Shown one piece after another: positions 7,678 through 61,906 of a stretch of 64,000 nt of DNA. Under the pieces are notes generated by a model. It had not been told where the DNA came from, searched no databases, and worked only from the letters and a program-made list of their open reading frames with translations. Within the stretch, counting starts at the first letter, position 1, and the number at the start of each line of letters is the position of its first letter. Source of the stretch: Phycomyces nitens (Eukaryota; Mucoromycota; Mucoromycetes; Mucorales; Phycomycetaceae); assembly GCA_022702545.1 (NCBI GenBank), contig JAHRBC010000008.1, positions 124,001 to 188,000 on the forward strand, read 5' to 3'. Both the position numbers and the translations under genes were made by a program.

Positions 7678-9591
7678 GGTATCGATCTGGTATTTCTTTT
7701 CTGGCACTTGTAACTAAGTCGCAGAATCAATACCACTGGGGATTGTCAAGTTTAGAGAATAGTTTTTAGATAGAATATAGATACTTTTTATTGAGACAAA
7801 TCCTTTTACTATTTATACAAAATATAATCGGATTTAAGGCTAAATGTATAGCTACGTTAATATGTCTTAGATGATGATTGTCCAGTAGGATATACTGACA
7901 AGCACTGCAAAAAATAATCTAAATCATTACAATATTAAAAGTTTATAATTGTAATTTTATGTATTAATTTAATATCTGATAGATAAATTTTAATAAATGC
8001 CCAGTCAGTATGTTAAAGAATAACTGACCAGATATTATATATTAACATGTCAGATTTGAAAATTCGGTGTGAGCTTAGTTATAAAGATTGTGTATAAACT
8101 CTATTCCAAAAGCAAACATACATACTATTACAAATTAAGAAAAAAACATGTACTGTTTGAGAACACCTGTCTGAGAAGAACATATATCTAGGCACGTAAT
8201 AACAGCAGTGTTTTGCATTTTTTGATGGCAATGATTCGATCAATTGCTTCGGAAAAGCTGTTCTTTTTGGTCTTAATTCTAAAAATAATATTCTCAATTG
8301 GAAATTGGTTTGTAGGAATATATTTTTATTTTTATTTTTATTTTTATTTTGAATAAAAAAGAATTGCTCATAATAATAATTGCTCTATAATATTTATTCT
8401 AATATATATATATATAATTCTTGATTGTATGAGAGAGATGTAGATACTTGCTTTATGGATATATTCTATAATAAATAGCAAATGTTATTAATATGATTGA
8501 TTTTAATACTATTAATCAAATTATATAATACCTTGCTTCCTTGATTTGCTTGATATCTTTTTAGAGCTAGAGAATATTATGAGAAAAATTATTAAATATT
8601 TATACCAGCTTACTTATTATATATAGTCCTTGGAAATCTTGAATACTTTGATTTAATAAAGGCAAAGACAAACTTTTGAAATAGAATACTAAGTAGAGAT
8701 AGCAATGAGTAAGGATATTAAAAAATATTTTTCAAGTATATATACTTACTAGAGGTATGAATTTCTGGAGGGCGGCTATATAGATACATAACATTTCTAA
8801 TAAAATATATATCAGTAAGAAAAATAATCGAATGTAATAAAGAACATAGTACTTATCTTTGTATACCAGAATGATTTTGATTTTGTTTGCCAGGAGTATA
8901 TATAGCAAACCGCGCTTTAGAAGAAGTACTTGGATGATAATAAAAAGTAGAGAAAGAAAAAAATGGATGAATAAAAAACAATCCTTGAAATAGCCGTAGA
9001 ATCTGAGAGATGATTACGTATTTTTTTTTGAAAATAAAAAAGAAAAATATGTTTGTTGTGAATACCAAGTATGCAAAAAAGGCGATTAACACACTGTGCA
9101 CAAATGCAGTCTGTAATATTCGTTGTACTCTCAGTGCTACATGAATGGTTTAGGAAATAAAAATATAAAAACAATAGAAATAGGCATACTCGTAAAAGAT
9201 ATTATTTTATAAAACGAATGAATATTTAGTTATATGGTTGGAATGAATATTCAAGTAATTAATCAAACTAAAGATCTGAAGATATTAAATAATAATTATA
9301 TATATATATGTATCATTGTCAAATCTAGATTTTATAAATATTAAGATAGACAACATTTATTGATATCGGGCAAGTACCAACTGGAACACAGATAGATCCT
9401 CTGCTTGATTGATATGTCATAAGAATAACAATTCATTTTTATATTTATAATCAAAATACTCAAAGATTTTTTCAAGCAGACCTTAACACTAAATAGTAAA
9501 ATGTATGTTGATACATGAACAACTATATTCTATAGAGTGATTACTATCAGACAAATACTTACAATTGAATAAATACCAGAATCTGTAAATT

Positions 9592-10821
9592 ATGAGCCAG
9601 CAATTAAACAAGGGAAAGAAGAACATGTCTGCAAGAGCGTCATCCTCCAGATCACTACTTACCACAGTGAACACTGGCCGTGTTGTCACCCCTCGCCCAT
9701 TACTTGCTTCTAGATCTGACGATGTAACAATCCCCAGGAGTGAATATAACACTATGGTTGGCCTTTTATCCACCGTTGATAAAAAGTTAACTGGTGTATC
9801 AACACAAGTTGGTGCAGTGTATGATAACGAAAGGCAAATGATGTTGTCTCTCAATGGTCTTGTTGCTTGCCAAGCCAGAGACCAAGTATCAGTCCAAATG
9901 CCCGTGGTAGAAAATGATGAGATCGTGAATATCATCCAACCTGAAGATATTCTTTCTGTCTCTAACTCACAAGTTAGCCTTCAGGATATCGTCAGTGCAA
10001 CAAGATATCCAAAGTTATCTGTAAGTTCTAAATGAAACAGTAATATCAAAATATATTATTAATATATACTTTTAGAAAGTTATTCGAGATTACTTGAAAA
10101 ACTTTCATCTTAAATCAGACGATCCCAGTTTGATCAAGGATAATGAAGAGAAGCCAACTTGGGATGTCAGTGTTGGATTGGCTGATGATGTCAATCAGAA
10201 TCTAGCAAACGCTCTGATCATATATGCCCGTGAACAGCCTGAATCAACATCAGTAACAGGAAAAGAACTGGGCACAATAATTATAAATAATTATTATAAC
10301 CGTTTGGCTGATAGCAAGCTTGTGCCAGAGCTTAGAGAAGCAAAAAAGACAGCAAACCGAAGAGGCAACCGAAAAACTGAAGTAAGTGAATATTAAATAA
10401 AATGCGCAAATATTTATATATTATGCTTTTTCACTTTAGCTTTTCAAGAGACGAAAGAGAACCTTTGTAAAGCACAAGGAAGCTGTTGAAAGAAGATTCA
10501 ACAGGGATGCCAGTGGCGTCTTTCATAGAGATGTAATGTCAGATGATGAAACAGACATGGAGATCACTGTGAGGGTACTTCGTCCAAATTGGAGGAGTGA
10601 TGAGGTAAAACACAGGCAGATTGATATTTCTTATGTTTTATGTCTAATGATAAAATATATCTGTATAGCTGAATGAGCTGTTTGACTTTTTGGACATGCT
10701 TGCCAAAAAAGATCTAGGAAAGAAAGCCAGTCAATTGAAGACTCGTCATTATGTTGTCATACAAAAGACAATTCCTCGCGGCTTAGTAGCCAAAATTCCC
10801 GCATGGTCAAAGCGTGAATAA
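9592..10821 (+). CDS. Partner protein of CACTG transposon, four exons
   Basis: Exons 9592-10020, 10076-10381, 10440-10604 and 10669-10821 join in frame at GT-AG introns of 55, 58 and 64 nt to give about 350 residues. The N-terminus is Ser/Thr/Arg-rich and followed by a likely coiled coil (MVGLLSTVDKKLTGVSTQ). Exon 2 starts KVIRDYL, holds KPTWDVSV, and ends in a basic RRGNRKT patch. Exon 3 is basic (LFKRRKRTFVKHKEA), then acidic (MSDDETD), then RPNWRSDE. Exon 4 ends with IPAWSKRE. It converges on the transposase gene with 97 bp between stop codons. I do not recognise the family. By analogy with two-component transposons it may bind the element ends; that is inference. The start could also be the Met at 9625. 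Confidence 0.8.
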
Positions 10822-10918
10822 ATCAACAAGCATCTCTTTTTCACTCCTTCATCTATATTGATTTTGGCATATATATATTGCATATTTTATGTAAGAAAGT
10901 AAAAAAATAAGAAGAAGA

Positions 10919-13416
10919 TTAAGCATAAATTTTTCTAGGCAATGGAATAACAATGACTTTGGCTGCACCACGGCCAGAAGCTTGATTGCCGATTGCAATT
11001 GGAGATAGAATTCGATGAACTGGTAGAATGTTGTCATAGTCATATTTTTGAAAGGTCAGCTTATACATATCAATTCCTTGGTCTATTCTTGGCTGATGTT
11101 GAAGAACTTCGTACCATTCAACAAAAGCAAAGACATGCTGAGGATTGAGTCGTGTCATAAAGTTGTCATAGGTGGGTTTTGGAGAAAAATTGTGGGCAAA
11201 AAGATACTTGATATAGCCAGCATAGGTATAGCTCGACTCACTATTTTTCTCAATGTATATAGCCTGGATATACGACCCTCTTGTATTTGACCCTTCACCA
11301 CCTTTGTAGACTTGGCCAAGAAGATTAATGAATGGAATCTTCTGGATTCGGTCATTGACAAAATTTGAGCTCTGGACTACACCTTTGGCGCTTTGCAAGA
11401 GATTGTCTTGGTACTCAATGCGATAGAACTTGAGAAGGCAATTGTACTCGGCCGTTCTCATTGTTGTTGGCTCTTGGAGTTTTAATGGCAAGGCTGATGG
11501 TGGAAGAGACTCGTTTCCTAATATGCATGTTTCAGTTTCAGTTGCAGAGTCAACAAACGTAGGCAAGTGAAATATGGTAATCATATTGTTTTGGGGAGGG
11601 ATTGTGGCATAGGTTTTTGTTATACTGGTAGACAGTTTTTGGAAGAGGGAGAGATGAGATGGGTTGGTGAGGGTGGTGAGGTGTGATCTGTAAAAATCGC
11701 CCTTTGATGCATTTTCGATAAATTTATCCATATAGGTTTTTTCAAAACCATTCTTCTTGTTCGTGTTGAAACCTTTGATCAGGCCATTGTATCGTTCAAA
11801 GCTGAAAAGCCAGTATCCGTATATTGGGCCAAAATCTTGGATCGTTTCTTTCAGGTGAAGATGAAGGTGCATATTGGGCGATAAAAGATCGGGCTCATAT
11901 AATTTCTCACATCCAATACAGAATTTCTCCAGACTGTTGTGAGCTTGGCTTAATTCTTCATTGGTGATACTTGGCTTTGTTAATAATCGGCATGCATCAA
12001 CGAAATGAATCCAGTTGACAAAAAGATCATTGGGTAATCGAGACTTGAGCACGACAGGAGAATATACTAAGCACCAGGATTTCCATTCATCGGCTTTCAT
12101 GAAAGGAAATCCCTTTCCAATCTTTGTGGTTAACGTGGTATAGTCTGGTGGCAGAGTCATGGTATTTGCTTCATTTTGCATTTCCGCAAGATCATGGTCA
12201 TTGAGAAGATTATCAAATAACCATTTTTCGATCATTCTCTTTGCAGTTCCCAGGAAAAGGTTGTGCATTGGATCAATTATTGTTGATCTTACGGGCTCAA
12301 AGTATCCTAGTCGATGGAGCTCTGACCAGCGAACCCCGTTTTCAACCTCCAATCGTTTTCTCTCTGTATTGGTTACTGCATTCTTCCACATACTAGCATG
12401 CTTCATATTTTCTTCTTTGGTTCTGCCTGTCCATTCAGACGACTTGAAACCAGAATAATCGACGATGCTGGTACCTTCAAACCGATGGAAGTGGCGATTA
12501 CACTTATGGCATGCATTTGTACTGTTGTGCGAAGTGAATCCACATGTTTTTCTTGCAGCAGGTATATCGCATGCAACCATTAGCAGAGCAGCACAGACCA
12601 GAGTCTTGGAGCATGTGTGGGTGTTGATATAGATGCCTTTGTACAAGTCTTTCAGCTCATCAACAAGAGGACGAAGATAGTTATTTATCTCTGAAGTGCT
12701 GGCTTCTTTTGGTCCAGGCATCAGACCCACAAGTATGACATTCTCTGCCTTATTTCGCTCTTCTCTTGGGAGGTTGTTGATTGTCAGGTATATTGCTCCA
12801 CAGGAATATGTTACCCCATCAAAGGGTTGAAACCAATCGATGTTGAGAGTGAGCAGCAACGACCTTTCCTTGGCAACAAATTGTAAACCAGCTTCATCTA
12901 CGAACTCCTTCCACATTCTTCCATCATATACGTCAAACATTGTTCCATCAATCTTTGGTCCACGATTCCACTTGTTAATTTGATTCTCAAATGTAGGGCG
13001 CTGGAACATTTTTTTCAAGGCTGTTTTGAGTGAGTTATATACATATGTGCGGTTTGGTCTCATAGTTTTGTTGTTGCTGATTTTGTACAATGCGTTTCCA
13101 CACTCTCTATTGCTTCCAAGTTTCGTGAAGTCGCATGTACTAGGAGCTCCATTAACATCACTGAAGATACTATGACAATTTCCACATGCTACATATTTTG
13201 ACACGCCACTTGTTAAGTTGCTGAATCCACTCATTTTCTTCAAGCCAGGAATACTAGTAGGAAGACGAAATTCCTCACCATAGTGCTCAAGAACGGAATT
13301 GATAAAGGTAATCAAAATGGCGCTGCCCTCATCAACAACAAAACAAGATATGAACATGACAATGAACACCGTTATCAGTCGGTGCCATGGATCTTGAGGA
13401 AGGTTTGGTAAATTAT
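10919..13416 (-). CDS. Tnp2-like CACTG transposase, main exon (outer element)
   Basis: This 832-codon exon (acceptor at 13417-13418) carries the catalytic region. It contains LTLNIDWFQPF, IIDPMHNLFLG and FSFERYNG, giving a plausible D-D-E triad at about residues 201, 389 and 548, counted from the in-frame Met at 13438. A zinc-ribbon-like set (CGNC...TC...EC) lies at residues 85-113 and a second Cys cluster (ACHKCNRHF) near 310. These blocks fit the Tnp2/Transposase_21 class of CACTA transposases. The reading frame is uninterrupted. The 5' exons are at 20119-19607, separated by a 6.2-kb intron created by the inner transposon. The Met at 13438 lies in intron sequence and is probably not the real start. 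Confidence 0.85.
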
Positions 13417-13675
13417 CTATAAGTTGATTGAGCCGCATGTTAACACTGCAAAAATGGTGTTAAATCAATGATTAATTGTGGGGTGTTATTATCAATAACA
13501 GTATATGAAAAATTGCAACTCAGGGAAAATCCTTTGGTTAGTATCATTGACAGATATAAGCATGTCTTATTGGTTAGATAGATTACGGAGTACCTGAAAG
13601 TAATAATAAAACTATAAAGGAATGGGCAATAAACTACTGCTATTATATATTCTCTTTTGATATAAACCCTAAAAA

Positions 13676-16600
13676 ATGTTTGCCATTCCCAATGCTAATG
13701 AAGTTGAATGCCGATGCTCGAAATGCGTTTGCAATCCTGCTGGCTACATGATCACTGCCAAAAGAACTGCCAAGCGTCATGCTCAGAGTGACAAAGACAG
13801 AGAATTGGATAGAAATATCAATCGTAAATAAAATGGCTATTATATAGTGTGGGCTGTAATATTAATAATATTTTAAATAGTCTTGCCCGTCCATCAAAGC
13901 AGTGTTGATGTGGACATGGAAGCAATTGAATTTGAAGAGGACATTGAATGTACATAGTATTTTATTTTTTATACTCAATATACACTTTACTTATGCTCGG
14001 TTTCAATAGATGACAGTTACTCTAATGATGTACCGTCATCCATGGAATATCCCGATGGGTTCTTACCTCTTTCGGCCGAAGATTTTCTTTTTGGAACAGA
14101 TGAGCTCATTGAAGAATATTCATCTGAGCATGAATCGTCTGATGAAGATGCCGAGGAAGAAGAGGCCGAGCAGGGTGAAGGTCAGCAATAAACAAGTGTT
14201 GCTAGTGCCTTTGGATAAAAGATATTAATATTTAATTATCATTAATACTCACAGAGAATTCAGCCAATCTTCCTGAAGATCCATGGCATAGATTGATAGC
14301 CATTTTTCTTGTCATGTTTATTTCTTCCTTTGTTGTTGATGAGGGTGATATTGATTTCATTCATTAACGCAATCTTGGAGCACTATGGGGAAAGCTTCAG
14401 ACTCCCAACAAGTATCCCCGGTTTAAAGAAGATGACTGGATACAGTGCTATGACAAGTGGTGTGTCAACATTTGTTGCATGCAGTGATTGTCACACTCTG
14501 TATAAAAGCAATAGTGAAGTACCTACTTGTTGTACCGGAAAGAAACTTGGCCGCCAGAATGAATGTGGAAACAGTCTGTTCAAGTCTGGAATTAGTAATG
14601 GATTGACTGCAAAGCGCACTTTTGTATACAACTCGCTGAAAACTGCCTTGGCAAAGCTTTTCAAGCGTCCTTCATTTGAAACAGCCATAAACATGTGGAA
14701 TCGTGGTCCAAAGGTTCCTGGCACCATGTTTGATGTTTATGATGGAAAGATGTGGAAGGAGTTTGTGGACGAGGACGGCATGCAGTTTGTGGCCAAAGAA
14801 AGATCATTGCTGTTAACACTCAACATCGATTGGTTCCAGCCTTTTGATGGGGTAACTTATTCTTGCGGTGCGATATATCTTACAATCAACAATTTGCCAA
14901 GAGATGAACGTAATAAGATGGAGAATGTGATTCTCATTGGGCTCATGCCAGGTCCCAAAGAAGCAAGCACTGCTGAGATCAACAACTACCTGCGCCCCCT
15001 TGTTGATGAGCTCAAGGATCTGTACACTGGTATCAGTATTGATACGTATAGTCGTTCTGGTGCTTTGGTTCGTGCTGCTCTGCTGATGGTTGCATGTGAT
15101 ATACCTGCTGCAAGAAAGACATGCGGATTCACTTCTCACAACAGCAGAAACGCATGCCATAAGTGCAATCGGCACTTTTTCCGTTTTGAAGGCACATCCA
15201 TTGTTGACTATTCTGGATTCAACTCTTCAGAGTGGATTGGCCGCACAAAAGAAGAGAACCGCCAGCATGCCATCATGTGGAAAAACGCAGCAAGCTTGAC
15301 AGAGAGAAAGCAATTGGAAGTTGAGAATGGAGTGCGGTGGTCTGAGCTTCACCGCCTTTCATACTTTGAGCCAGTCATGGCAACCATTGTGGACCCGATG
15401 CACAACCTCTTCCTTGGAACGGCCAAGCGCATGATGGAAAAGTGGATCCTGTGTGGTCATCTTGATGATAACGACCTTTGTGAGATGCAGGTTGAGGCAA
15501 ACACGATTACATTGCCCATGGAATATGCCACTCTCACCACCAAGATCGCAAAGGGATTTCCATTCATGAAGGCAGATGAATGGAAATCATGGTGCTTGAT
15601 TTACTCGCCTGTTGTGCTGAAGGGACGGTTGGAAGATAATCTGTTTGCCAACTGGATCGAGTTTGTTGATGCCTGCCGATTATTGACGAAGCCAACAATC
15701 AGTGAAGAAGAGGTTGAGCTTGCTCATGATAGTCTCGAGAGATTCTGCAGTGGGTGTGAAGAATTGTACGAGCATGACGTCCTGTCTCCAAACATGCACC
15801 TTCACCTCCATTTGAAAGAGACAATCCAAGATTTCGGGCCCATTTATGGATATTGGCTGTTCAGCTTTGAACGCTACAATGGGCTTGTCAAAGGCTTTAA
15901 TACCAATCGTAAAGCCGGTTTTGAGAAGACGTACATGAATAAGTTTGTCCAAAGTGGTTCAAAAGGTGACTTTTACCAAGCTCATCTCGCCACCATCACC
16001 AGCCCAAGTCATCTTGCTCTGTTCAACAGACTGTCTCCCACCACTGTGTTTGCGCCTCAGCAAAATAGGCTGTCGATTTTTTCTCTCCCTGCCTTTTTGG
16101 AATCAGCAATGGATCCAACAAAGCAAACGTTTGGCAATGAGCCCCTTCCGTCATCTGCCCTGCCATTGGTCCTGAAAACACCAACAACAATGAGGAAAAT
16201 TGAGTACGAATGCCTGCTGAAGTATTACAAGATGGAATATGCCGATGATGATCTTTGCAGTGCAAAGAACATCATTAGAAGCACAAACTTTGTCAATGAC
16301 AGAATCCAGAAGTTTACCTCGATAAATCTTCTTGGACAAGTCTATAAAGGCAGCGAGGGGGCAAACGGAAGAGGTTCATATATCCAGGCAATGTATATTG
16401 AGAAAAACGGTGATTCTGGGGAGATATACGCTGGTCGTATTAAATATCTTTTCGTTCACAATTTTTTGCCAACCCCTACTCCAGCCAACTTTCTTGTGCG
16501 CCTGAATCCTCAGCATGTTTTTGCTTTTGTTGAGTGGTATGAAATCCCTTACCATCAACCAAGAATCAACCAGGGTATTGAGCTGTATAAGCCAACTTTT

Positions 16601-16732
16601 CAAAAGTACAACTATGATAATATTTTGCCTGTCCATCGCATCCTTTCGCCAATTGCGATAGGCAATCATATTTCTGGTCGTGGTGCAGCCAAAGTTCTTG
16701 TCATTCCCTTGCCTAGAAAGCTTTATGCTTAG
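13676..16732 (+). pseudogene. Tnp2-like CACTG transposase with one frameshift (inner element)
   Basis: Exons are 13676-13823 (Cys cluster CRCSKC and KRTAKRHAQSD), 13881-13949, 14010-14180 (very acidic) and 14255-16732 (main). The main exon matches the outer transposase closely and keeps NIDWFQPF, IVDPMHNLFLG and FSFERYNG. Compared with the outer copy, 5 nt are missing near 14347, just after FVVDEG. This shifts the frame and creates a stop. The exon length of 2478 nt is out of phase, while the other four copies are in phase. Downstream of the shift about 795 codons remain open. So the gene is probably broken by a single recent lesion, unless translation starts at a later site. Confidence 0.75.
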
Positions 16733-16853
16733 ACTTCTTTTTCTTTTTATTATTATTATTATTATCTTTCACTATCTTATATAAAACATACAATACTTGT
16801 GTATTCAAAACAATATTAATGAAAGTATAGGAATGAGAGATGCAAGTAATTGT

Positions 16854-18039
16854 TTATTCACGTTTTGTCCACGCGGGCATTTTGGCTACTAAGCCACGAG
16901 GAATTGCTTTTGATACAACTATGTGATGGCGAGCCTTCAGCTGGCCTGCTCTCTTTCCCAAATCACTTATTGCAAGAGTATCGAGAAAGTCAAAGAACTC
17001 ATTCAACTATCCAAATATTTTCTTTGTTAAACATATAATAAAAGTGGAAATATATGTTATAGCTACCTCATCACTTCGCCAGTTTGGGCGAAGCACTGTT
17101 ACAGTTGTGTCTGTATCACTTTCGTCATCAGACATGATATCTCTATAAAAGACGCCACTGTAGTCTCTCCCAAACTTTTCGATGGAGGCGGCCTTGTGTT
17201 TGGCAAACGTTCTCTTCCGTCTCTTGAAGAGCTAAAAAATATAATGATAAATATATTTATGTTTCTCTTATTTTTTATAGAGCCACCTACGTCTGTCTTG
17301 CGATTACCTCTTCTGTTTGCCTTTTTTTTGGCTTCTTTGCCCTCCAGTGAGAGCTTGCTGTTGGCCATGCAGTTGTAATAGTTGTTTACTATCATACCAC
17401 ATAATTCTTTTGTTGGAACAAAGGCAGACTCACTCTGGCCACGCAGATACACCAACAAGTCATCTGCCACATTCTTGTTGACCTCATCAGACAACCCAAC
17501 ACTGACATCCCAAGTCATCTTTGCATCATTCTCACTTATTGTTTGGGGATCATCAGTGTTGAGATTCATGTTTCTGAGGCGATCACGAATGAGTTTCTAG
17601 TTTATATTGATTAATAATGATTCAAGCAGTGTTTACTTTTAATATTTACTGAGATCTTTGGGTTTCTGCTATTGCCAACAACATCTCGCAGTTGGATCTC
17701 AAAATTACTACTCTGGATAGCCTGTGGACCGGCCAACTGAGGAGCTTCTTGTCTCTTCATTGCATCAAAGACAAGACCATCCACGGAAGTCATCATTTTG
17801 CTTCCACTATCCTTGAGTGTGCCGACATCATTGCACATAGTTGTCATTTTTTTGTCCAAGGTGGACAAGAGGTTGACTATGTTATCAAATTCCTCTCTAG
17901 AAACCCCAACAACATCTTGTCTAGGAACAAGAGAAGGACGAACAGGTCCTACACGGCCATTGCTGACAGTATTAATCAATGGTCTGGACATTGATCCATT
18001 TGCAGATGCATTTCTGGCGGTATTGATTCTTGGTGCCAT
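16854..18039 (-). CDS. Partner protein of inner CACTG transposon, four exons
   Basis: Exons 18039-17650, 17596-17291, 17231-17067 and 17006-16854 join in frame, giving about 337 residues. Exons 2, 3 and 4 have exactly the same lengths (306, 165, 153 nt) as the outer element's partner. Landmarks: coiled-coil-like IVNLLSTLDKKMTTMCND, KLIRDRL at the exon-2 start, MTWDVSVGL, YYNCMANSKL, basic RRGNRKTD, acidic MSDDESD, RPNWRSDE and the terminal MPAWTKRE. It converges on the transposase gene with 121 bp between stops. All reading frames and splice sites look intact even though the transposase beside it is frameshifted. Function unknown; probably DNA-binding or transposase-assisting (inference). Confidence 0.8.
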
Positions 18040-19606
18040 TTTCTTAATTATTCAATAAATAAATCAGCATATATAATATATTTTGATAGCCCATTATGAA
18101 CTTACATGATAAAGAAGATGGTGGTTAGAGTTATTGAAAGAGTAAAGAAGTATATGTAGATATTAATAAGAATATAAGAGACTCTATTATACTTTGTCTA
18201 TAAACCAAGACGGAGTCAAATTCTTATTAATATATAGACCAAAACCTTTTTCTTGGGCACTTTCAATGTATAACTAACATGACTCTCCGATTTCAAAGCA
18301 AGAGAGAATGATCATGCGTATTTCAGGGGGCATAGATATTTTAATCGTAATTTTTATTTTTTATTCTTTTACCCTTTTTCTGCTCTTTAACACTATGTAA
18401 GTATATCACCTAAAATTCTCGCACCTTACATTATATACACATAGGGTGCCAAACATCAGATTTCTTTTATACAAAAGGTAATTACTATCAATCACATTCT
18501 TTACACGTTGGTCATGTCTCTTACCATAATATTTTCAAATAGCTGCGACTTGCCATGATATCATTTTATAATCCATGTTTATCAAAAAAGTTATTATTGC
18601 ACCCATGTATGTATTTCTTCCTTTCTTTACTTTCTCATTTATAAAAAAGACATTGCTCTAACATGATTGCAGTTTACATTGTATACTCTTAGTAAACCAA
18701 ATATCCATTTATTCAACTGCCAAAGGTATGTATTTTCAACTATTTCTCTTGTTAAAAATATTTTTCTAATATCAATTATAGTATATCCATGCCCAAATGT
18801 ATCCATTATTACGAGCATATGAATATATACTGGCTTGTTTATATCAGTATACTCTTGTTTCTTTCATTTAATGAAATACCCGGTTGCCAAGTAAGTACCT
18901 TGCCTTTCAACTCTATAAAATGCTATAACAAAAAATCTAAAATGTGCTCTTTTACTCAATTACTAGACTATAAAACTTGGTCAGGTAAATATAATCGGAA
19001 TCCATGTTCTTCAGGTAGGAAATAAAATATGGTCTGCAAGAACCATTAGACGTATTATTAGAATAAGACCATGTAGTCCAGATCAAGAGATTATATTACT
19101 GCAAGTGCTTTTACAAATAAAAATATTATAATAAAATATACAAAATTATTATATCCTACCAAAACAAAATCAATATCAAATGTGTTTTTTTAAAAATCCG
19201 ATCAATACCAGGTGTTGTTGAAGCAATTGATCCAATAGAATGAATCAATAGGCAGCCGAAACCACCTAGTATTGAAAAAATAACAGCTCTCTCAAATCCA
19301 GGTGGTTTATAAATGGGGTTTTTTAGTAATCTATATTTGTAATTTTACAGATACTTGGCTTTCAATTAAGGTTCGCACACAGATAATGTACCTAAGCTCC
19401 CTTTCATAATGACAAAGTAATCAATACCATTTGGGCAAAAATCCAATATTATGTCAGCTAGGTATTCTATAATATTATGCTGTCAAGCATTATTATGTTA
19501 CATAATATCCCAATAACCAACACCTGTTATTTCCATGATTTGCGTATATTTTTCCAGTGTAATGTATTCCTTTTAGTAATAACATCATCCTTTTTTTATT
19601 TTGCAC

Positions 19607-20119
19607 CTGTTTCTTCATCCTGGTCCTGCTCTTCATCGTCATCACTCTTCTCATAGTCTTCAGAGTCAGAGAAAGCATCAAGATCTTCTTCACCTGTTCC
19701 AAAAATAGACTCTTCCACTGAAAGAGGTAAGAAGAACTCTATATTCTCAATTGGTAAAGGTGTACCAGGAGAAGAAATATTGTCTATGGATACACAATTT
19801 AAATACAGTTGAATATCCCTTTGGTAAATAAAATAAAATTACACTCAAAACTCTCTTCAGTCTGGTCTATGTCCATAGTATTATTGATAGTGTTTACTTG
19901 GCTTGAATATGCTATTTGGTTTGGATTATATATTATTATTATTAAGGTCTATATTTCTGTAGCTTATTTACTATTAATCTGGCTGTTAAACAATTTGTCC
20001 TCATCACTTTGGACATGGCGTGCTGCAGTTCTTTTGCTCGTCATTGTGAAGCCAGAATGATTGCGAGAGCATTTCGAGCATCTGCATTGCACTTCATTGG
20101 AATTACGAATGGAAGACAT
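19607..20119 (-). CDS. 5' exons of the outer-element transposase
   Basis: On the minus strand, exon 1 (20119-19972, 148 nt) encodes a Cys/His cluster, CRCSKCSRNHSGF followed by KRTAARHVQSDED. Exon 2 is 19911-19843 (69 nt). Exon 3 (19783-19607, 177 nt) is strongly acidic (YEKSDDDEEQDQDEE). Phases join exactly to the main exon at 13416, where the codon split gives DNLPNLPQDPWHR, matching ENSANLPEDPWHR of the inner copy. Start Met at 20119 is chosen because it gives the conserved exon-1 length. The intron to the main exon (19606-13417) starts GTGCAA and contains the whole inner transposon. Confidence 0.75.
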
Positions 20120-20465
20120 TTTTCTTGTTACTTAGTATAGTAAAGAAGGAGTACAAAGTATCCAGTACTAATAATTAAAAAATACTTTTTTACTTGAGAA
20201 TAATAAATCAAATGATTGAATATCATTCAGCCAATAAAAACATTCAAATCAATCTCTATTGTTAATGCAAGATTTTGCCTGAGTTATAAATATTTTTACT
20301 CATGTTATTGATAATTCCAGATAACTATTAAATTATGATTTAAATTGATTTTTGCAGTGAAGATATTTGCAATCTAAGACATTTGAGACATTTGAGACAT
20401 TTTCCAAAACATATGCAAGAAGACCCATCGGCAAGGTCTGAGTGTTTACCCAACAAGGTCAACCA

Positions 20466-22824: not shown

Positions 22825-22830
22825 CAATGG

Positions 22831-25871: not shown

Positions 25872-26003
25872 ATAAAAAATAAATAAAAAACAATTGTTTT
25901 ATTTTACTCTTGCTTACGTATTTAATCCCAAAGACATGTTTAAAGGCAATGAATGTTTTGTTTTGTTCTTTTTAAAAGAAACAAGTATTTATTTATTAAT
26001 GCT

Positions 26004-29082: not shown

Positions 29083-29326
29083 TGTGTTTGTGTTTATAAT
29101 GTTAAAACAAAAAGGAAACGAGTGTTACATATACTTTATTTATTAATATTTTATAGTGGTAAAAAAGCAACGTTGTTTTATTCTTTTTAATCAAGCCAAT
29201 GGGGTCAAGCAAAAGAACGTTTTTAATCAGAACACAAAAAAAGGTGTTGAGCTGCAAATTTGCCCTAATTTTTCTCAGGTAGACAGCTTTGCTCACACAT
29301 GAGTATTCAGACCCATTTTTCCAGTG

Positions 29327-38557: not shown

Positions 38558-38573
38558 ACAGGCATGACAAAAT

Positions 38574-38579: not shown

Positions 38580-38589
38580 TAATATTTTC

Positions 38590-47333: not shown

Positions 47334-47936
47334 CACTGCAAAAGAAGGGTTGTATTAGCCAGAATTAGAGATTTTGAATTATTACGAATTTTTAAAAATG
47401 AATTCTAACTCCATCATTTTGACAATTTTTTAATGATGAGACCTAATTTCGCATTTTATTTCATATATGAGCTCTAAATCGCATATTTGACGCAAAATAG
47501 CACACATTTTAATTGACTTTGCAAAATAAATAAATTAAATTGGCATTATTTTTTTTTCATTTTTATAAACTATATCGATTTTTACGATTATTGCTTTTTT
47601 ATTGATTGTATAGACAAAACATTCAATATAGTTAAGATGAATCAATGTGTACATAATAATAATGACCAATATTTTAAAATAAAAAAATAATATTCAAGGA
47701 TAATTAATAATTTCGGCACCATTAGTAATCCACCAATTTTTTTGAATGTAAGAGATTGGGTTTGTAATGCTTATAAATATTAAGGGAGATTGATTCAAAG
47801 CCCAGATATCAAAAGACGATGATGAATAAATGGTGTGTTTGATAATAGGATTAATAATATATATCGTCTCGCTCTGAAATACGATTCATATAAAAAAGAG
47901 CCAAATATAATACCTCTTGCTCATATAATCTTTATT

Positions 47937-50900: not shown

Positions 50901-51071
50901 TTGATCAACCAAGGTCTGGAGCTGTGGGAAAAGGGGTTTTTAGAGGAGACCATTGAGTGTATTATTCCAGTACATCGTCTGCATTCTTGCTTTGCATTGA
51001 CAACTCACAATCTCCAACAAGGGTCTCAAAAACGCCTGATTATTCCATTACCTAGAAAAGTCGTCACTTAA
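47937..51071 (+). CDS. Tnp2-like CACTG transposase (CACTG-4)
   Basis: Exons 47937-48093 (157 nt; CKCSACTKYTANG...MRHKN), 48154-48225, 48283-48498 (acidic, EDSDSNDESSDEDE) and 48568-51071 join in frame, giving about 980 residues with no stop or frameshift. The main exon keeps LTLNVDWFQPF, IVDPMHNLFLG and YSFERYNG as the D-D-E blocks, plus a zinc ribbon (CNKCF...TC...ICNN) and ACHKCARQF. It is the most diverged of the five, with a longer exon 1. All splice sites are GT-AG. Of the five CACTG units this is one of only two (with the outer element) whose whole transposase reading frame looks intact. Confidence 0.88.
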
Positions 51072-51604
51072 TAAAAAAAATTGCGTTTTTGACCACAAAC
51101 ATCAGCCACGTAATGCTTATTTTTCTTGTTTTACTTTACCATCTGTTATTTTATCAATACATTTTTAAGATTGATTAAAATATTAGATTGATATATACAA
51201 GTTTCATGTTCTTTAAAACAGATATCAAAACAAATATTTATTTTCTTCAGCTCATTATGCGATAAGCCAAGTAGCTGTTTATTTAATACCCGATAATCAG
51301 CTATATTTTAAAGTTTATACTACATAATATACTAAAAATTTTCATTTAAATTCCAAGTTTATAAAGCCGATGAAAATATTTTATTTTACTATTAAATATT
51401 TGTTTTGCAATAATTATGACTAAAATAAAATAACCATTAAAAATAATATTGTTTCTCACCATCTTGTCTTTCTTTATTTTTTAATGCTTCAACAATACAA
51501 AAACGAGTAATGCCAATCCTACCACCATCATCTTCCAGCCCAACAACTTGTTTCAACTTATTCAATAAAGACCATTATATCAAGACAACCAAATACAAAT
51601 ATTT
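51072..51604. other. Convergent intergenic region of CACTG-4
   Basis: 533 bp between the stop codons, against 97-132 bp in the other four units. AT-rich, no gene, with several AATAAA-like signals on both strands suitable for polyadenylation. Confidence 0.5.
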
Positions 51605-52702
51605 TTATTGCCGTGTTGCAATCCACTTGGCAACACGCGCCTTCTGCTCTTTTGACAATTCAATATGTCTACTTTCAACAGGACAAGAAGAAAAGTCAAT
51701 GACCTTCATCTTCTTTTCCTTGCTCCTCTGGGCTTTCAACTCGCCCAAGTACTCCTCGACCTATATCATAATCAAATTAATTAATTATATGAAGCACATC
51801 AAATTTGCCCGAACAATATCTTACCAAAGGATGTCTGTTACTGGGAGTATAAACGGTATACTCCCGTTGCTCATCATCAGACTCAATGTCAGACAAAATC
51901 TCTTTGTCTAAGAGATCCTCGACTGTCTCTCCATACTTGGACTCCAAGTTCGCCCTGTCTGCCAAATGCAGCCTCTTGTAGGCGGCGAGGACCTATTTCA
52001 AAATCAAGTATTATAAGTATGAAAACAAATATTATATTATACTAACTCTTGTTTTTCTCGTACGTCTACGAGAAGACTGGTTTCGCTTAGCTAACTTTTC
52101 TGGCGAGGTGTTAGCTCTGTTTAGCTTGTACGAGATATGCCGTCTTGTTTTTTCCTCTATGACTGCAGACGCAAGAGGCTGTCCTTCGGGCTGTTGATGG
52201 ATATACATCCGGACCTTGTCTGCAATAGGCCGGTTGGATGAAGAGAGTGCCCCCTCATTCATTGTCAATGGTGTAGACACCAAGACATTCCTTGTCTCTG
52301 ATCGTATGAGGCGCTATATGACATAGGGTAAGTAATTCATCAATATAAAATTAATATTTATATATAGATATCCTACCGAGACCGATGGAAGTCGATACTT
52401 CATATACATCTGTGGTGGTGGAGCTTGATGGGGGAAACTTGGCTACTGTTGCCATTCGAGTTCTTGAGGGATTCCATCCCTTGGTGGACCTGCTGCAACA
52501 GGACATGCGACTCATTCAGTCTTGTCTGAAGAGCCGACAGGTTTGACAACACTGCGCCGTCCTGTTCAGCGTTGTTGCTTGGAGCAGGAAGGATCGTCTG
52601 CATCACGGTTCCTGCTGGTCTAGTGCCACTAGTCTTACCAATCGACTTCTTGGTAGTCGACTTGTAGGTCTTTTTAGAGCTTGATGATATAAATTGAGAC
52701 AT
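51605..52702 (-). pseudogene. Partner protein of CACTG-4, probably frameshifted
   Basis: Exons 52702-52377, 52313-52047, 51992-51825 and 51760-51605. Exon 1 has a Ser/Lys/Thr-rich start and a coiled coil (LSNLSALQTRLNESHVLLQQ). It is 326 nt and not a multiple of 3, unlike the other partners; the frame is lost near the G-run at 52430-52434. Exon 2 (267 nt) starts RLIRSE, lacks the conserved Trp block, and ends in basic SSRRRTRKTR. Exon 3 has ILSDIESDDEQRE and TPSNRHPL in place of RPxWRSDE. Exon 4 ends RVAKWIATRQ. It is the most divergent family member. An undetected splice choice could rescue the frame. Confidence 0.6.
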
Positions 52703-54407
52703 TGAATACTAGAAAAATATATTAAAGTGTGAGGTTCGTTGATTATGAATATCTATTTTCCAATAGATTTTGAAATATTCCGTAAATAATACATACATGA
52801 GAAAGTAATTAAAAGTAATTAAAAAGTATACTTCTTTCTAAAGAGGTTTTATAGTATTTTGATCTTTGCTTACATTATGCTGTCAGGTATACTTAGTAAT
52901 CTGCTTCAACTGGCTAATCCATTTAATTTGCTTGCACTGACTAATCCATTTGTAATATTTGGGCTCTGTTTCAAAAATACAAATCGTTTTATTAAGTGGG
53001 CTTATTAGTTCCACGTCACGTTCGGGACACTCAATATCGCCATTGATCTCTATTGGATTATTGCTTTCAACCTTTGTTCTTTTCTTTTCTTTTCCTTTCC
53101 TTTACTTTTCGGCATAGTAAGCATCATTCTCTTTTAAAATTTTTTTTTACTCATCATGACTTTATATTTGTCCAGATATTCTTTTCTATATCCATACAAG
53201 GGCTGCTGGTTTATGTCAATAACTCTGGTATACTGGTAATGTTCTTTTTATTATCTCATTCAGTTTCCACAAGCTCATTGCTCTGCTTAGTAATTCACGG
53301 CCTCCCATTACAAACAAATACAGAGGAGCACTTTGCTGTATATTATGGTATGATAACACTCCTTTATACACTAGACATGCTTTATTAACATTCGTTCCAT
53401 TCATTAGAATTTTTTCGGTCATCTGGTATGTGCCGATTCCATGTCATCTGGTCAGTAATTGTGTCCGCTATACCCATTACCAAGTAAGTATACAACCTTT
53501 CAGCCCTTATATTACTTTACTAATCTCTTATCTAATAGATGTAATCAAAATATTTTTCATCTGGTTGGCCATTGCGCCCATTGCGCCCATTACACTGATG
53601 ACCAAGTAAGTATATAACCACTCAACGTTTATATTATTTTCCTGACATATTCTTCATAGATATTACCGAAATTTTTTATACCATTTATCAAAGTATTCAA
53701 GTTTTCTCGATATAAATACCAATGTAAGTATTGTTGTTCCATTCAAATTATTTTACAGTCTGCTAAAATACACCTATGAAAATTATCTAGCCACCCTTTT
53801 TTTTCAAAAGAAAACAAACACCCACGTAAGCAGTGCCGCAGCAAGTAACAAAGGAAGGTAGGGGGGGTCTAGTAGACCAGGGTAACCCATATATTCTCCG
53901 GATGAGTAAAAGAATACCCATCCAATTGAGAAAAGGGCAAGGCTAGCATATTAGGCAATAAAATTAGGAGGGAGTAGAAATGAGAACGAATAGAAAACAT
54001 TAGAAAAGCTTTTTATCCAATAAAAACTATTATAAACTACATCTTTGGCCTGTATCTGCCATGAATTCATACCGAATTCATACTGAATCCTATGAGGACA
54101 CTGCTTTAATATTGAAAAGAGCAACCTATATAAAGTAATTTAAAGAACTGAATCCTTCGGGGCTAGAAAATATGGGACGAAAAAAAAAGAAACCCCCCAA
54201 TTTTCGTGACAAAAAAAAGCACAAAAAAAATAACCCACCTTTTGCTTTTTGCGCTTTGACGTTTCAGTATACTGATTGGAATCATTCAGACAACGAATCC
54301 TAAAAATTTAATATTAAAAAATTTGGCAAATTTTATATCAAATCTTTATCATTCAGTCAAGAATTTTATAAATATCAGTATACTAAAATGGCCCTTCTTT
54401 TGCAGTG

Positions 54408-55653: not shown

Positions 55654-55896
55654 CACTGGGAAAATGGTCCTGAAGTACAATGATAAGAAGTAACCTTTAA
55701 AATCTATGCAAAACTGGAGTGATTTTGTATCTCAGAAAGTTTTTCATATTCAGGTTAAAGATAAAGCTTTACTCTATCTTATTGGCTTAGACACAATAGA
55801 CATATGAATATCAATTTGTAAGATTATAAAGTTGTTGAGAATAAAGTATATGTAACACTTGTTTCCTTATTATCTTAATATTTAAAAGCATACAAT

Positions 55897-58800
55897 ATGT
55901 CTTCTATTACTCAACTTTGCAATGAGGCCTGTTATTGCACTAAATGCAATGGTAACGCCCAAGGTTACAGTCTGGTAACAAAGAGAACCTCTCAGCGTCA
56001 TAATAAGATAGCAAGAATTGACAAACTTGAAAGAATTGTGATGGGTATGATGATTTTGGTATTGTTTTTTGGCCCTTGTATAATAACACGGTTTTTTATT
56101 AAACACAGAAAGACAAAGAGAAATGGTGGAGATTGATATTGAATGTAAGGAATATTTATTTGAAGAGCAGCAGATAGTAACAAGCTATTGTATTCTATAT
56201 GTAGCTATCACAACCCATCAATCTGGTTCTATGGAAAGATAGAATGATTTTTCCCACTCACCCATCGTGGAATCTGAGCTGATGCTGGATGGCGATGATT
56301 CAGCTGCCAATGAGGTGAATGGCAATGTCAGCAACAATGAAGATGAGAGCAATGCCAAAGACAGTGATGGTGACAATGTCAAGGAGATTGAAGTTGAGGA
56401 TCTTAGCAGTGAAGGCGAGTGTTAAATAAAGAAAAAGAACCTGAAAAAATTGAGTGTTAATAATTATCATTTTAAAATAGACCCCTTTTCCTCCCCCGAG
56501 ATGCCAGAGAATCCAGTGCATAGGTCTATTGCCATATTTGTGGTCCTGTTTGCATCCCGCTACGTGGTCAACAAGGGTGCTGTTGTCTTGATCAAGTTTA
56601 TCAACAAGCTCTTGAAGATCTACGAGCAGGATTTTCAATTGCCCTCTAGCCTTCCTGGTCTCCAAAAGATGATAGGTTTCTCAGCCTTGACCAAAGGAAT
56701 AAAGAAATCTGTTGTGTGCCAGGATTGCCACAAGGTGTACGAGAAAGCTGGGTCTGTTCCTGAGTTCTGTAACTCATCCAAGGTTGGTTCCTGCTCTTCC
56801 TGTGGGTGCAAGTTGATGAAGGCGTCCTTTTTGGGTACTTTGATTCCAAGACGCCAATTCCACTATCAGTCCGTCAAGCAGGCGTTGAGTGTCCTTTTCC
56901 TCTGCCCAGATTTTGTGGCCAATATCCGCCATTGGAACAAAGAGCTTAAGGTTATGGACACCAAGTGCGATGTGTATGATGGTGCCATGTGGAAGGACCT
57001 GAAGGATAAGGATGGTGTCTCCTTTGTTGCTGACCCACGTTCATTGATGCTGACATTGAACATCGATTGGTTTCAGCCATTCAATGGGGTGACTTATTCC
57101 TGTGGAGCAATCTACTTGGCAATAAACAATCTTCCTAGGGCTGAGCGGTTCAAGCCCAAGAATATCATCCTTTTTGGTCTGATGCCTGGGCTGAAGGAGC
57201 CAAAATCCAAAGAGATTAACAACTACCTGGAGCTGCTGGTCAATGACCTGAACCAGCTGTACATTGGTGTTTCCATCCCAACGTTTGAGTGCCCTTCTTC
57301 TGTGGTTGCCTGTGCTGCCTTAATGATAGTCGCCTGCAACATCCCTGCTACCAGGAAGACTAGTGGCTTCACAGCCCATAACAGCACTCGGCCGTGCTAT
57401 AAGTGCAGTCACAGTTTCTCCTGTCTGGAAGACACAAGCCATGTGGACTTTCATGGGTTTGAGTTTGTCAAGTGGAGGCTTGCCAATGGTGAAGAAAACC
57501 GGGTGCATGCTGAGGAGTGGAAGAGTGCAAGTACGCCCTCAGAAAGGCATCAACTGGAGGTCAAAAATGGTGTTCGATGGTTGCAGTTGCATCGCCTTGG
57601 ATATTTTGATCTAGTACGTGGAACAATCATTGATCTCATGCACAACCTATTCCTGGGTACGGCCAAGAAGATGGTCAAGACATGGACTGCCAGTGGTCTG
57701 ATCACAGACCGGGATCTTTGTCAGATGCAAAAGGTGGCAGAGACGATGGTGTTGCCTGTGGGATATACCATGTTGAAGACGAAGATTGGAAAGGGGTTCC
57801 CCTGAATGAAAGCCAACAAGTGGAAGTCCTGGGTGTTGATTTACTCTCCTGTTCTGCTGCGGTCTGTTCTTTCTGGAATGAAGTTCAAGAATTGGATCAG
57901 CTTTGTTGATGCCTGCTGTCTCCTCACCAAGCCTACCATCACTTTTGATGAACTTGATGAGGCCCATAGTCACCTGGAGAAGTTTGGTCGGGAGTGTGAA
58001 CAACAATACCCTAGTACCATCCTCACCTGCAACATGCACCTACATCTCCATCTTTGCAACACTGTTTGTGATTTTGGACCAGTGTATGGTTATTGGCTCT
58101 TTGGGTTTGAGCGATATAATGGGTTGTTAAAGAATGTTGATACAAACAGGAGAGATGGGTTTGAATCAACATACATAAAAAGTTTTACTGAAAATATGTA
58201 TAAGGGTGATCTTGTCCAAAGACTTACATGTCAGAGCCAAGTCCCCTTCAAAGTACTATTGAAAAAACTCACCTCCTTGTCTAATACTTTGATAGTAGCC
58301 CCAGCCCCAGCACCAGCACCTCAACGCCGTTTCCGTCTTGATGCATTCCTGCAAGCCTCGTTGGATGTCAGTCTTACGATTAAGGGTAATGAAGCTCTCC
58401 CTCCGTCAGCATTACCTTTACCAACAGCAACAGCAACAACACAGATGGGTGATATCAACTATCCCCATCTCCTAGAATATTACAAGAGAGCATATGACAA
58501 TGAGCACCTTGTTGACTACTGCCATGCATCTTCTTCACCATTCTTTGTCAATGACCAAATCACAAAGATCAAGGCTATTGATCCTCTTGGTCAGACATAC
58601 AAGGGCAAAGGTGGATCTGGCAGTCGCGGGTCATATATCCAAGCTCTTTTTCTGGATTTTGAGGGCAGAAAGACAAACGCGTACACAGGAGAAATTCAAT
58701 ACCTGTTTGCCCATAACCTCGTTCCTCCTCCCAGCCCCTCCAACAGCCGCCCTCATCTCCACCACAAGCAACATGTGTTTGCATTCGTCCACTGGCTTGT

Positions 58801-58987
58801 TCCAGATCCTGACAATCTCAGACCAGTTGAGCAAGTTGACATCTGCCTCCCTGGTTTTGCACCAAACACGTTTGACAGCATCTTGCCAGTGTACAGGATT
58901 ATTTTGGAAGTGGCTACGGCCAAATTAAAAATTGAAAACAATGCAAGGATGCTGGTCATTCCACTGCCAAAAAAAATATATGCATAA
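55897..58987 (+). pseudogene. Tnp2-like CACTG transposase with two nonsense codons (CACTG-5)
   Basis: Exons 55897-56044 (148 nt; CYCTKCNGNAQGY, KRTSQRHNKIARID), 56109-56144, 56205-56414 and 56481-58987. Exon 3 contains TAG at 56240-56242, and its donor is GC (gcgagt) where the sister gene has GT. The main exon has TGA at 57803-57805, inside the conserved GFPYMKADEWKSW block. Catalytic blocks LTLNIDWFQPF, IIDLMHNLFLG and FGFERYNG remain. No frameshift is seen in the main exon, so decay is by point mutation. It is closest to the CACTG-3 transposase. Confidence 0.85.
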
Positions 58988-59118
58988 ATACAAATAAAAC
59001 TTTTCTCTCTCTCTCTCTCTTTTAAAGAAGCAAAAAACAAAACAAAGCCAAAATATACATATAGTCCAAATAGTGCGTATGTGAAACAGGGTGAAAATTA
59101 AGAGAAAAAGAAAACATT

Positions 59119-60305
59119 TTATTGTCTCAGTGACCACTGAGGAAGGGAGGGAGAAAGCCCCTCAGGGACTGCTAAATCCGCAACACGGCCAAATACTCTT
59201 AGTAGCATTTGGCGCACGTTGACACCCAAGCCAAGGAGTGAGTACAAGTCCAACAACTCAATCAACTGATTGAACTAATACACATTCATTAGAATATTAT
59301 TTTATGATTAAAAAGCAATAAAAAATCTTATTTAAATAATATGTTACCTCATCGCTCCTCCAGCTTGGGCGTACTGTGCAGATCATCCGCTGGCCAGGAA
59401 CTCCAGGAAACTCATCCTCAGACTCACCCTCAGACATTGCTGCCTTTTGGATGAGTGCTGAGCAATCATTGCCTATCGCATTGTCAATGGCATCCTTGTT
59501 GGAGAGGTATGCCATTCAATGGCAATGGAAATGCTAATCAAACATATGTTTAATATTGTTTTTCAATCTCAAGTCTTTTAGATGCTATACTATTACATAC
59601 ATCAGCTTCCCGGCTGGCTTTTCTGGCACAAACATTTGCGGCTACCCATGCCTCAGGAGATACCCTCTCCTGGCAACGCCTTCCGCAAAAGTTCCAGTAG
59701 ACACTGTCCCGAAGATCCCTTTGGCACAAGCCAGTGTTGATGAAAGTTGCACCCAGGTAGGCAAGGAGTTCAAGAACCAACTCCTTGTTGGGCGATTCAT
59801 TGAAATGAACCTCCGTTCTCTACCTGGGCCTGTTGTTGTTGGCTTGCACCATAGCCGGGTTGTTTGACCTGAAATTGGGTCTCCACAGATAGTCTCGTAT
59901 ATGTTGCTATTAAATTTTTATAAGCCAATGAATTGGTAAGCTATTGAGAATATTAATACTTACAAACACTTCTGTGGCGGCACTGGGGTTATACTCCACC
60001 ACAGCCGGGATGATGGGAACTGGGCCAGTGGCAGGGATGGCAACATGACTAGGAGCAGGGTCAACAATGGTGAATAGCTCCTCACCAAAGGCAGAAGCAA
60101 GCTCGGCGGCAGGAACTGCACTGTTGTTGGCAGCCACCAACTCAGCCAAACTGTCAATAGCCTCGACAGTACTGGCGTTGCCTTCGATGCTGGTGCCAAT
60201 GCGAGAATCTACCCTGACAAGGATGTTTTGAATATCCCGCAAGGTCTCCAACAATTGGAGTTGCTCATCGGTTGAGCGAGAAGTGGGAGTGGATCTTGGT
60301 GCCAT
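59119..60305 (-). pseudogene. Partner protein of CACTG-5 with two nonsense codons
   Basis: Exons 60305-59964, 59906-59601 (306 nt), 59533-59348 (186 nt) and 59274-59119 (156 nt). Exons 2-4 are identical in length to those of the CACTG-3 partner. Landmarks: coiled coil LLETLRDIQNILVRVDSR, QHIRDYLW, LLAYLGATF, basic RKASREAD, MSEGESEDE, RPSWRSDE and the end LPQWSLRQ. TAG replaces the conserved Trp after NNNRPR in exon 2 (near 59821), and TGA lies six codons into exon 3. Stop-to-stop distance to the transposase is 131 bp. Confidence 0.8.
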
Positions 60306-61653
60306 GGTCTATAGAATATCATATGTTTTCAAAATTAGCTTTATATTCTATTTATAAATTATAGACTCTACTCTTTACATACAAAATAATTGGTTTGCGA
60401 GTGCAGGAGGGTCGATTCAATTGTAAATAGATGGTCTTTATATACACAGATGAGTTTAATAAACAGATTCCTAATTACCCTTTGTATACTCTGTATAAAT
60501 TAATAAAAAATAATTTTGGATCTCTGCTTGAAATTAAATATCATTTCTTTCTTTCTTTTTGTTCTATCTTCTTATCTCTGTTGTTTTATCTCTACGTGGG
60601 TTTCTAATAAGACATTCTTTATACTAACAAATTAATGGCTTCTTTATAAATGTATACTCATCCCAATACATTCTCTCTACATTGCCCATCTAGACTAATC
60701 ATGATCAGTTACATGTGCCGGTGCCATCTTGCAAGTTATTCTGATTGTCTCTTTCTATCCTGTAGACCTCTTCCACTTGTACAGCCTATTATATGGTGCC
60801 ATCATCAGTGCCAGGGTAAATAAAATCTTTTCGTGTCCAATTTCTTTTTTCTCAATGTTTGTTATTCTACAATAGGCCGCCGCCATCACTGTCTACCCCA
60901 TCTGCCTCCTTCATCATCTACGACTGGTTATCATAATGGTAATGCCATTTCTTGGTCTTTGTGCTTTTCCCTAATATTATTCTGGCTATTTACTAATACT
61001 TTTCTATATTCTTAAAAAGTTATTGTTGGCCGCCATATACCATCCCTCTACTATAATCGCCAACTCTGTTTTTGGTATGTAAATCGATTTTTCTATCACT
61101 CAATTCACCCATATTAATTTATTTTATCCCATCTCTAGTCAATCTAATCATACAAGATGCCATGCCGCACAACTCTGCCCCTCTTTGCCCATTCTTATCC
61201 AATCCTTGCAATGTAAGTATAATATCCCTTGCATCTTGAATAGCACCCGCACTTTTGAATATATGTCACTAATATAACTTTTATTATATCAGAATACTAC
61301 TGCAACCACCCAAATTGCTGCCGGACCCTATTTTCAGGTATTGTTCAGTAGAGAAGTATCCGATCCAAGTAATATCAAATAGGCTGGTAGAAGCGGCAAG
61401 GATAGACAGTAATAGTATTAGAGCTTGTGTATAGAACCATTCTATTCTTTCCAATAAACACAAATATAAACCATAAACCTTTTAAGTACGGGGTATAAAA
61501 TGATGGAAAGAGTAATTATTGCTTGATTATACAATAATGAGTTTCAAAGAGTGGTCAATACTGGCAGTTTGAATGGGTAAACAATAATAAACCCTCACTA
61601 TTAGCGTATGAAAAACAACAATAAGATCGCCCTTTCAAGATGTAAACACAATA
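60306..61653. repeat. Subterminal region of CACTG-5
   Basis: No gene here. From about 60600 to 61560 it is the reverse complement of the region at 23196-24430 (and 2526-4240), with only about one copy of the ~235-bp unit (anchor ATCATAATGGTAAT at 60930). A block near 61330-61500 contains the conserved GCCGCTTCTACCGGCC-type sequence in reverse. Confidence 0.65.
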
Positions 61654-61906
61654 CCTGTACACCAAAAACATAATGTCGGATGTAACAATTGAGTATATCA
61701 AGTCAGTTAAGCATGTCAAAAATGCTAACAAACCTTTGTTCTATTTGCTGTCCCAACTTTTACCATGTTTATTTCGAGTCTTACAACCTGATAGGAACCT
61801 AGGTTCTCCTATCTGTCATATCTGTGTTTTACCATAGAAAATTCACAACTTTTCACATATTTATTTACAGTTTTACACATGATCTACTTTTACCATTTTC
61901 CCAGTG

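What the first reader, a model, noticed from the sequence alone, without database searches (positions are those of the whole stretch)
7903..61906. A repeated two-gene transposon: CACTG ends, Tnp2 transposase and a convergent partner gene
Five units (7903-20359, 13444-19559, 22825-29326, 47334-54407, 55654-61906) share the same plan: CACTG inverted ends, a transposase with a Cys-cluster exon 1 and acidic exon 3, and a four-exon partner gene facing it tail to tail. Classical elements of this class end in CACTA. The CACTG terminus plus an obligate convergent partner may define an undescribed lineage of CACTA-like transposons.
Basis: partly seen in the sequence, partly recalled or inferred. Interest (0 to 1): 0.88.

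Follow-up and report, generated by a model that had tools for sequence, protein, structure and literature searches.

The report
Two-gene CACTA transposons in a fungus
The window holds five copies of a common kind of cut-and-paste jumping gene of a mould, each carrying, besides its cutting enzyme, a second faster-changing gene of no named family, and the two genes appear to have been inherited together as a pair.

Summary
Five units with CACTG-type ends, a Tnp2 (PF02992) transposase and a facing partner gene are present; unit 2 is nested in unit 1, one of ten ends reads CAATG, two of five have a perfect 3-bp target duplication, and unit 5 is decayed. They are CACTA/EnSpm elements of a Mucorales genome (49 Mb) with at least 616 Tnp2 motif sites. 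CACTG is not diagnostic: a plant guide gives CACTA or CACTG (PMC10741241), and Cryptococcus CNIRT6 has CACTG (PMC12810828). Unusual is the partner: a basic, mostly helical protein of about 310-350 residues without a convincing family or fold match. Of 100 Tnp2 sites listed in genome order, 75 have a facing partner within 4.5 kb (1.9 expected); 25 of 25 stretches fetched for Tnp2 hits have one. Over nine representatives the two proteins' distances correlate at r = 0.96. Capped protein searches found partner relatives only in Phycomyces and Mucor saturninus. Best explanation: the partner is the element's second transposition protein, working like plant TnpA, but from its own convergent gene. That role is inferred, not shown. 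Novelty: new variant of a known kind.

The parts
7903..20359 (-). Unit 1, CACTA element interrupted by unit 2; ends CACTGCAAAAA, TSD AAG/AAG
9592..10821 (+). Unit 1 partner gene, exons 9592-10020, 10076-10381, 10440-10604, 10669-10821 (350 aa)
   Evidence: 98-100% identical block by block to P0124 of Phycomyces nitens
10919..13443 (-). Unit 1 transposase main exon (Tnp2)
13444..19559 (+). Unit 2, nested in unit 1; TSD TAA/TAA
13679..13823 (+). Unit 2 transposase exon 1 with Cys motif (boundaries by eye, approximate)
14300..16732 (+). Unit 2 transposase main exon, PF02992; looks frameshifted near its start
16854..18039 (-). Unit 2 partner gene, exons 18039-17650, 17596-17291, 17231-17067, 17006-16854 (337 aa)
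22825..29326 (-). Unit 3; ends CACTGGAAAAA (at 29326) and CAATGGAAAAA (at 22825); no perfect TSD
24757..25871 (+). Unit 3 partner gene, exons 24757-25026, 25083-25388, 25452-25649, 25716-25871 (309 aa)
26004..28520 (-). Unit 3 transposase main exon
47334..54407 (+). Unit 4; ends CACTGCAAAAGAAGGG; no perfect TSD
48513..51071 (+). Unit 4 transposase main exon (open frame; 5' limit approximate)
51605..52702 (-). Unit 4 partner gene (most divergent; exon model rough, family link weak)
55654..61906 (+). Unit 5, decayed copy; ends CACTGGGAAAATGGT; no perfect TSD
56426..58987 (+). Unit 5 transposase main exon with in-frame TGA at 57803-57805
59122..60305 (-). Unit 5 partner gene (four blocks, not fully open)

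Best explanation
Each unit is a CACTA/EnSpm transposon of a Mucorales fungus, autonomous in type or decayed. The transposase (Cys-motif exon, acidic exon, DDE core with C(2)C and H(3)H) cuts at CACTG...CAGTG ends and makes 3-bp target duplications. The facing partner gene makes the second transposition protein: a mostly helical protein with a possible N-terminal coiled coil, a central helical domain, a basic patch, an acidic stretch and, in all but unit 4's, a C-terminal RPxWRS segment. Most likely it binds the element's end regions, multimerises and brings the two ends together for the transposase, the job TnpA does in maize Spm. Shown here: presence, convergent order, co-inheritance, make-up. 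Inferred: DNA binding, pairing of ends, need for transposition.
For: Tnp2 domain; DDE, C(2)C and H(3)H in 13 of 13 representatives; TSD in 10 of 16 copies with both canonical ends of one subfamily. Facing partner in 75 of 100 listed Tnp2 sites against 1.9 expected, 102 of 118 full-length copies by the first three partner queries, and 25 of 25 stretches fetched for Tnp2 hits. Nearest partner on the facing strand in 56, on the same strand in 2, of the first-pass hits among 100. Tnp2 and partner distances r = 0.96, 0 of 20,000 permutations as high. Same pairing suggested by adjacent locus tags on one contig in Mucor saturninus (two pairs) and P. blakesleeanus (one). A basic 25-residue stretch (net +7 to +12) and RPxWRS in 11 of 11 partner proteins examined (unit 4 not among them). 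Partner diverges faster than Tnp2 (56% against 73-74% for units 1/2), as reported for the second proteins of a Schistosoma CACTA element (PMC1636069, passages).
Against: No DNA-binding family or fold was found for the partner. The R206/R207/R210 patch is invariant in the 7-row alignment A1 but not in the 14-row A2. No excess of exact short repeats near the ends, as Spm TnpA sites would predict; part of the group has 235-bp tandem repeats there instead. 25 of 100 sites have no facing partner within 4.5 kb in capped searches. Selection on the partner is weak in the one pair of middling divergence (omega 0.64-0.68 for L032/L035 against 0.08-0.11 for Tnp2). No expression or binding data.
Confidence: 0.55

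Rival explanations
1. The partner is an anti-silencing factor that relieves host DNA methylation or RNA silencing of the element, and is not needed for the cut-and-paste reaction.
For: Fast divergence, basic protein, near-constant company of the transposase. Fungal DNA transposons often carry TET/JBP genes thought to counter silencing (PMC12730594, passages), and repeats of Phycomyces are enriched in 5mC (PMC11258239, passages).
Against: No dioxygenase or other enzyme domain. Maize TnpA is reported to act on the methylated promoter as well as being essential for transposition (PMC1636069 background), so this need not exclude the best explanation.
Confidence: 0.2
2. The partner is a self-made brake: a DNA-binding repressor of transposase expression or of end cleavage.
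For: Opposite strand and tail-to-tail order would allow repressor or antisense control (inference).
Against: No direct evidence; families of many near-identical copies suggest recent spread, which argues against strong self-repression.
Confidence: 0.12
3. The partner is a passenger gene captured once in the ancestor and kept by hitchhiking.
For: 25 of 100 sites show none nearby in capped searches; omega up to 0.68 in one pair; L031 has a partner with only a fragment of Tnp2.
Against: Present in every subfamily sampled, with 23 invariant columns in A1 although groups are only 23-29% identical; a dispensable passenger would likely have been lost from many.
Confidence: 0.08

Closest known systems
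CACTA/EnSpm superfamily (CMC), fungal branch
   Same: PF02992 transposase with DDE, C(2)C, H(3)H; CACTG ends; 3-bp TSD
   Different: Independent convergent second gene without a named family, near-constant in this group
Maize Spm/En with TnpD and TnpA
   Same: Two element proteins, one the Tnp2 transposase, the other smaller; the second proteins evolve fast
   Different: Spm makes both from one transcription unit by alternative splicing (PMC1636069 background); here the second gene lies on the other strand; no short subterminal repeat arrays seen; no sequence comparison with TnpA was run
CNIRT6 of Cryptococcus neoformans
   Same: About 7.5 kb, 24-bp TIRs beginning CACTG, 3-bp TSDs, CACTA superfamily (PMC12810828, passages)
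   Different: The passages seen describe one 6.9-kb gene annotation and mention no second gene
TET/JBP-carrying fungal DNA transposons (EnSpm, Plavaka, KDZ)
   Same: Transposase plus a second gene (PMC12730594, passages)
   Different: No TET/JBP match in the partner

Membership tests
CACTA/EnSpm superfamily | Tnp2/Transposase_21 transposase | tested here: met
   PF02992 above cut-off in all five units
CACTA/EnSpm superfamily | DDE core with C(2)C and H(3-4)H between second D and E | tested here: met
   13 of 13 representatives by pattern: 9, the other 4 with a looser E pattern; decayed unit 5 has N for D in two motifs
CACTA/EnSpm superfamily | TIRs beginning CACTA or CACTG | tested here: met
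   9 of 10 window ends CACTG; 16 of 20 copies L009-L028 with both canonical ends. In 7 further stretches convincing CACTG end pairs were found in 2 (L033, L034) and not in 5. Definition from PMC10741241
CACTA/EnSpm superfamily | 3-bp target site duplication | tested here: met
   2 of 5 window units; 10 of 16 copies with both canonical ends, 4 of the 20 dropped for lack of such a pair; my pairing score favoured TSDs
CACTA/EnSpm superfamily | Subterminal repeats | tested here: inconclusive
   No excess of exact 9-mers at the ends of 9 elements; 235-241-bp tandem repeats near the 3' end in unit 3, L020, L032 and a fragment at 2400-4300, not in units 2, 4, 5, L033, L034
Spm-type TnpA | Made from the transposase transcription unit by alternative splicing | tested here: not met
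   Partner lies on the opposite strand in every fetched pair
Spm-type TnpA | Binds subterminal sites and promotes transposition | not testable with these tools
   needs biochemistry
Spm-type TnpA | Sequence relation to TnpA | not tested
   TnpA sequence not fetched; no shared Pfam family and no PDB relative of the partner
TET/JBP-carrying fungal transposons | Second gene is a TET/JBP dioxygenase | tested here: not met
   No such Pfam match in the 7 and 14 partner sequences scanned

The most novel reading that the evidence does not exclude
Mucorales CACTA elements form an obligate two-gene lineage whose second, independently transcribed, convergent gene founds an undescribed protein family that has coevolved with the transposase over all subfamilies: a separate solution to the TnpA job.
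Probability: 0.45. Interest if true: 0.6.

Novelty: new variant of a known kind. Interest (0 to 1): 0.45.

Why it matters
Why CACTA elements need a second protein, and what it does outside plants, is open. Here is a genome with hundreds of copies, many near identical, and a partner family with conserved residues, so the question could be tested directly in a small two-gene system. It would also let annotators recognise some orphan 'hypothetical proteins' of Phycomyces and Mucor as transposon genes.

Full report
WHAT IS THERE. The window is contig C10:124001-188000 of a 49-Mb, 11-contig genome. Protein matches place it in the Mucorales: the Tnp2 of unit 2 is 96% identical over 62% of its length to a Mucor saturninus protein, and the unit 1 partner is 98-100% identical block by block to a Phycomyces nitens protein. 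Nine of ten ends begin CACTG followed by (C/G)(A/G)AAAA; the tenth reads CAATG. Two of five units have perfect 3-bp duplications. Unit 2 sits inside unit 1. Unit 5 is decayed (TGA at 57803-57805), and unit 2's transposase looks frameshifted near its start.

TRANSPOSASE. PF02992 matches above cut-off in all five units. [quoted passage not shown] unit 5 has two D-to-N differences. A CxCxxC-x16-RH motif precedes the main exon in 11 of 13 by pattern, all five window units included; none was found for L032 and L035. The C(2)C/H(3-4)H criterion is that of PMC12730594 (passages).

PARTNER. In unit 2 four exons give 337 residues; units 1 and 3 give four-exon models of 350 and 309 residues, and L032 and L034 fit the same plan. 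Models for L020, L030, L036 and units 4 and 5 are incomplete or rough. Seven aligned sequences share 23 invariant columns, among them RR..R and RPxWRS (one of the seven, P0124, is nearly the unit 1 protein); in the 14-row alignment A2, which includes truncated gene models, 10 columns are invariant and the RR..R columns are not among them. All 11 partner proteins examined carry a strongly basic 25-residue stretch and RPxWRS. Unit 4's partner is the most remote, 16-23% identical to the others, shows no RPxWRS in its rough model, and is tied to the family by position, layout and weak matches (E 0.001-0.01). No Pfam family matched more than one member (7 members; 14), no solved structure matched below E 0.1, and no fold match was found.

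HOW CONSTANT IS THE PAIR. (a) Stretches fetched because of a Tnp2 hit: 25 of 25 have a facing partner: L009-L028, all of one subfamily, 20 of 20; L032; L033-L036 4 of 4. Three more were fetched because of a partner hit: L029 and L030 also have a facing Tnp2, L031 only a fragment of its end. The short loci L001-L008 were left out. (b) Of full-length Tnp2 copies from three searches (scored hits only), 40 of 41, 22 of 31 and 40 of 46 had a facing partner hit within 4 kb; random placement gives 1.6%. Comparing coordinates by eye, 7 of the 9 misses in the second set have a facing partner. (c) A motif pattern finds 616 Tnp2 sites in the genome and none with the reversed control; it catches 3 of the 5 window units, so 616 is a lower bound. 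Of the 100 sites listed, in genome order (78 on C1, 22 on C4), 75 have a facing partner within 4.5 kb (1.9 expected by uniform placement) and 82 within 12 kb (5.7 expected). The 25 misses may be unqueried subfamilies, insertions or real losses; the partner searches scored at most 150 candidates each. Conversely 58 of 87 distinct partner loci on C1 face a pattern-matched Tnp2 within 4.5 kb; 29 do not.

CO-INHERITANCE. For nine representatives the identity matrices of transposase and partner correlate at r = 0.96 (0 of 20,000 permutations; without unit 4, 1 of 20,000). In Mucor saturninus INT47_012155/012156 and INT47_005589/005588, and in P. blakesleeanus 167209/167210, consecutive locus tags on contigs of equal length are Tnp2 and partner; I saw no map of them. 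Partner relatives: 7 hits and 15, all from P. blakesleeanus, P. nitens or M. saturninus, in a search limited to shared words. In the tree the 22 Phycomyces, M. saturninus and window-genome rows form one side of a branch (100/99), apart from Rhizopus, Circinella and unnamed rows.

ENDS IN OTHER SUBFAMILIES. In L009-L028, 16 of 20 show both canonical CACTG ends, 10 of these with a 3-bp TSD. In seven further stretches convincing end pairs were found for L033 (no TSD) and L034 (CAG/CAG), not for L029, L030, L032, L035, L036.

SELECTION. Tnp2 is under strong constraint in the two usable pairs (omega 0.06 with saturated dS for units 1/2; 0.08-0.11 for L032/L035); the partner is looser (0.15 with saturated dS; 0.64-0.68). 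Close pairs are uninformative.

HOW IT LIKELY WORKS. The transposase does the chemistry. A basic, mostly helical partner without a recognised enzyme domain, kept by every subfamily sampled and tracking the transposase, is best read as a second transposition protein that binds ends and helps pair them, as TnpA does for Spm. This step is inferred. Anti-silencing is the main rival, and the two can coexist. Absence of short subterminal repeat arrays is against a close copy of the Spm mechanism; 235-241-bp tandem repeats lie near the 3' end in unit 3, L020, L032 and the fragment at 2400-4300, not in units 2, 4, 5, L033 or L034.

AGAINST THE LITERATURE. CACTG ends are ordinary: a guide to plant transposons gives CACTA or CACTG as the typical start (PMC10741241, one passage); CNIRT6 has CACTG and 3-bp TSDs (PMC12810828, passages). 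Two-ORF CACTA elements are known in plants (PMC8978399, passage; PMC1636069, passages). EnSpm is among the DNA elements reported from one up to a hundred copies in all Mucorales sequenced in PMC7928374 (passages). No listing of my ten literature searches described this partner.

VERDICT. Real; ordinary as a superfamily member; unusual in its near-constant convergent partner of no named family.

Noticed in passing
2400-4300: About four 235-bp tandem repeats matching the 3' subterminal region of units 3 and 5: a stranded fragment of a related element.
   Followed up: partly
43772-46252: Open frames of 491 and 196 aa without a Pfam match; the first has an MPGP-like motif resembling Tnp2 by eye, perhaps a remote CACTA-type transposase lineage beside unit 4.
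   Followed up: partly
Several transposases of this genome are nearly identical to Mucor saturninus INT47 proteins on small contigs, while the unit 1 partner is 98-100% identical to a Phycomyces nitens protein. Contamination, a label problem or horizontal transfer; not resolved.
   Followed up: no
20466-22886 and 30109-31674: Gypsy-type retroelement pol frames (reverse transcriptase, RNase H; integrase in the first) lie on either side of unit 3.
   Followed up: partly
54383-55387: A frame with a sub-threshold endonuclease/exonuclease match (E 3.5e-4) directly beside unit 4, perhaps a LINE fragment.
   Followed up: no
L031:5733-6854: A partner gene with only a fragment of Tnp2 nearby: a deleted or interrupted copy, or a partner-only derivative.
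   Followed up: no
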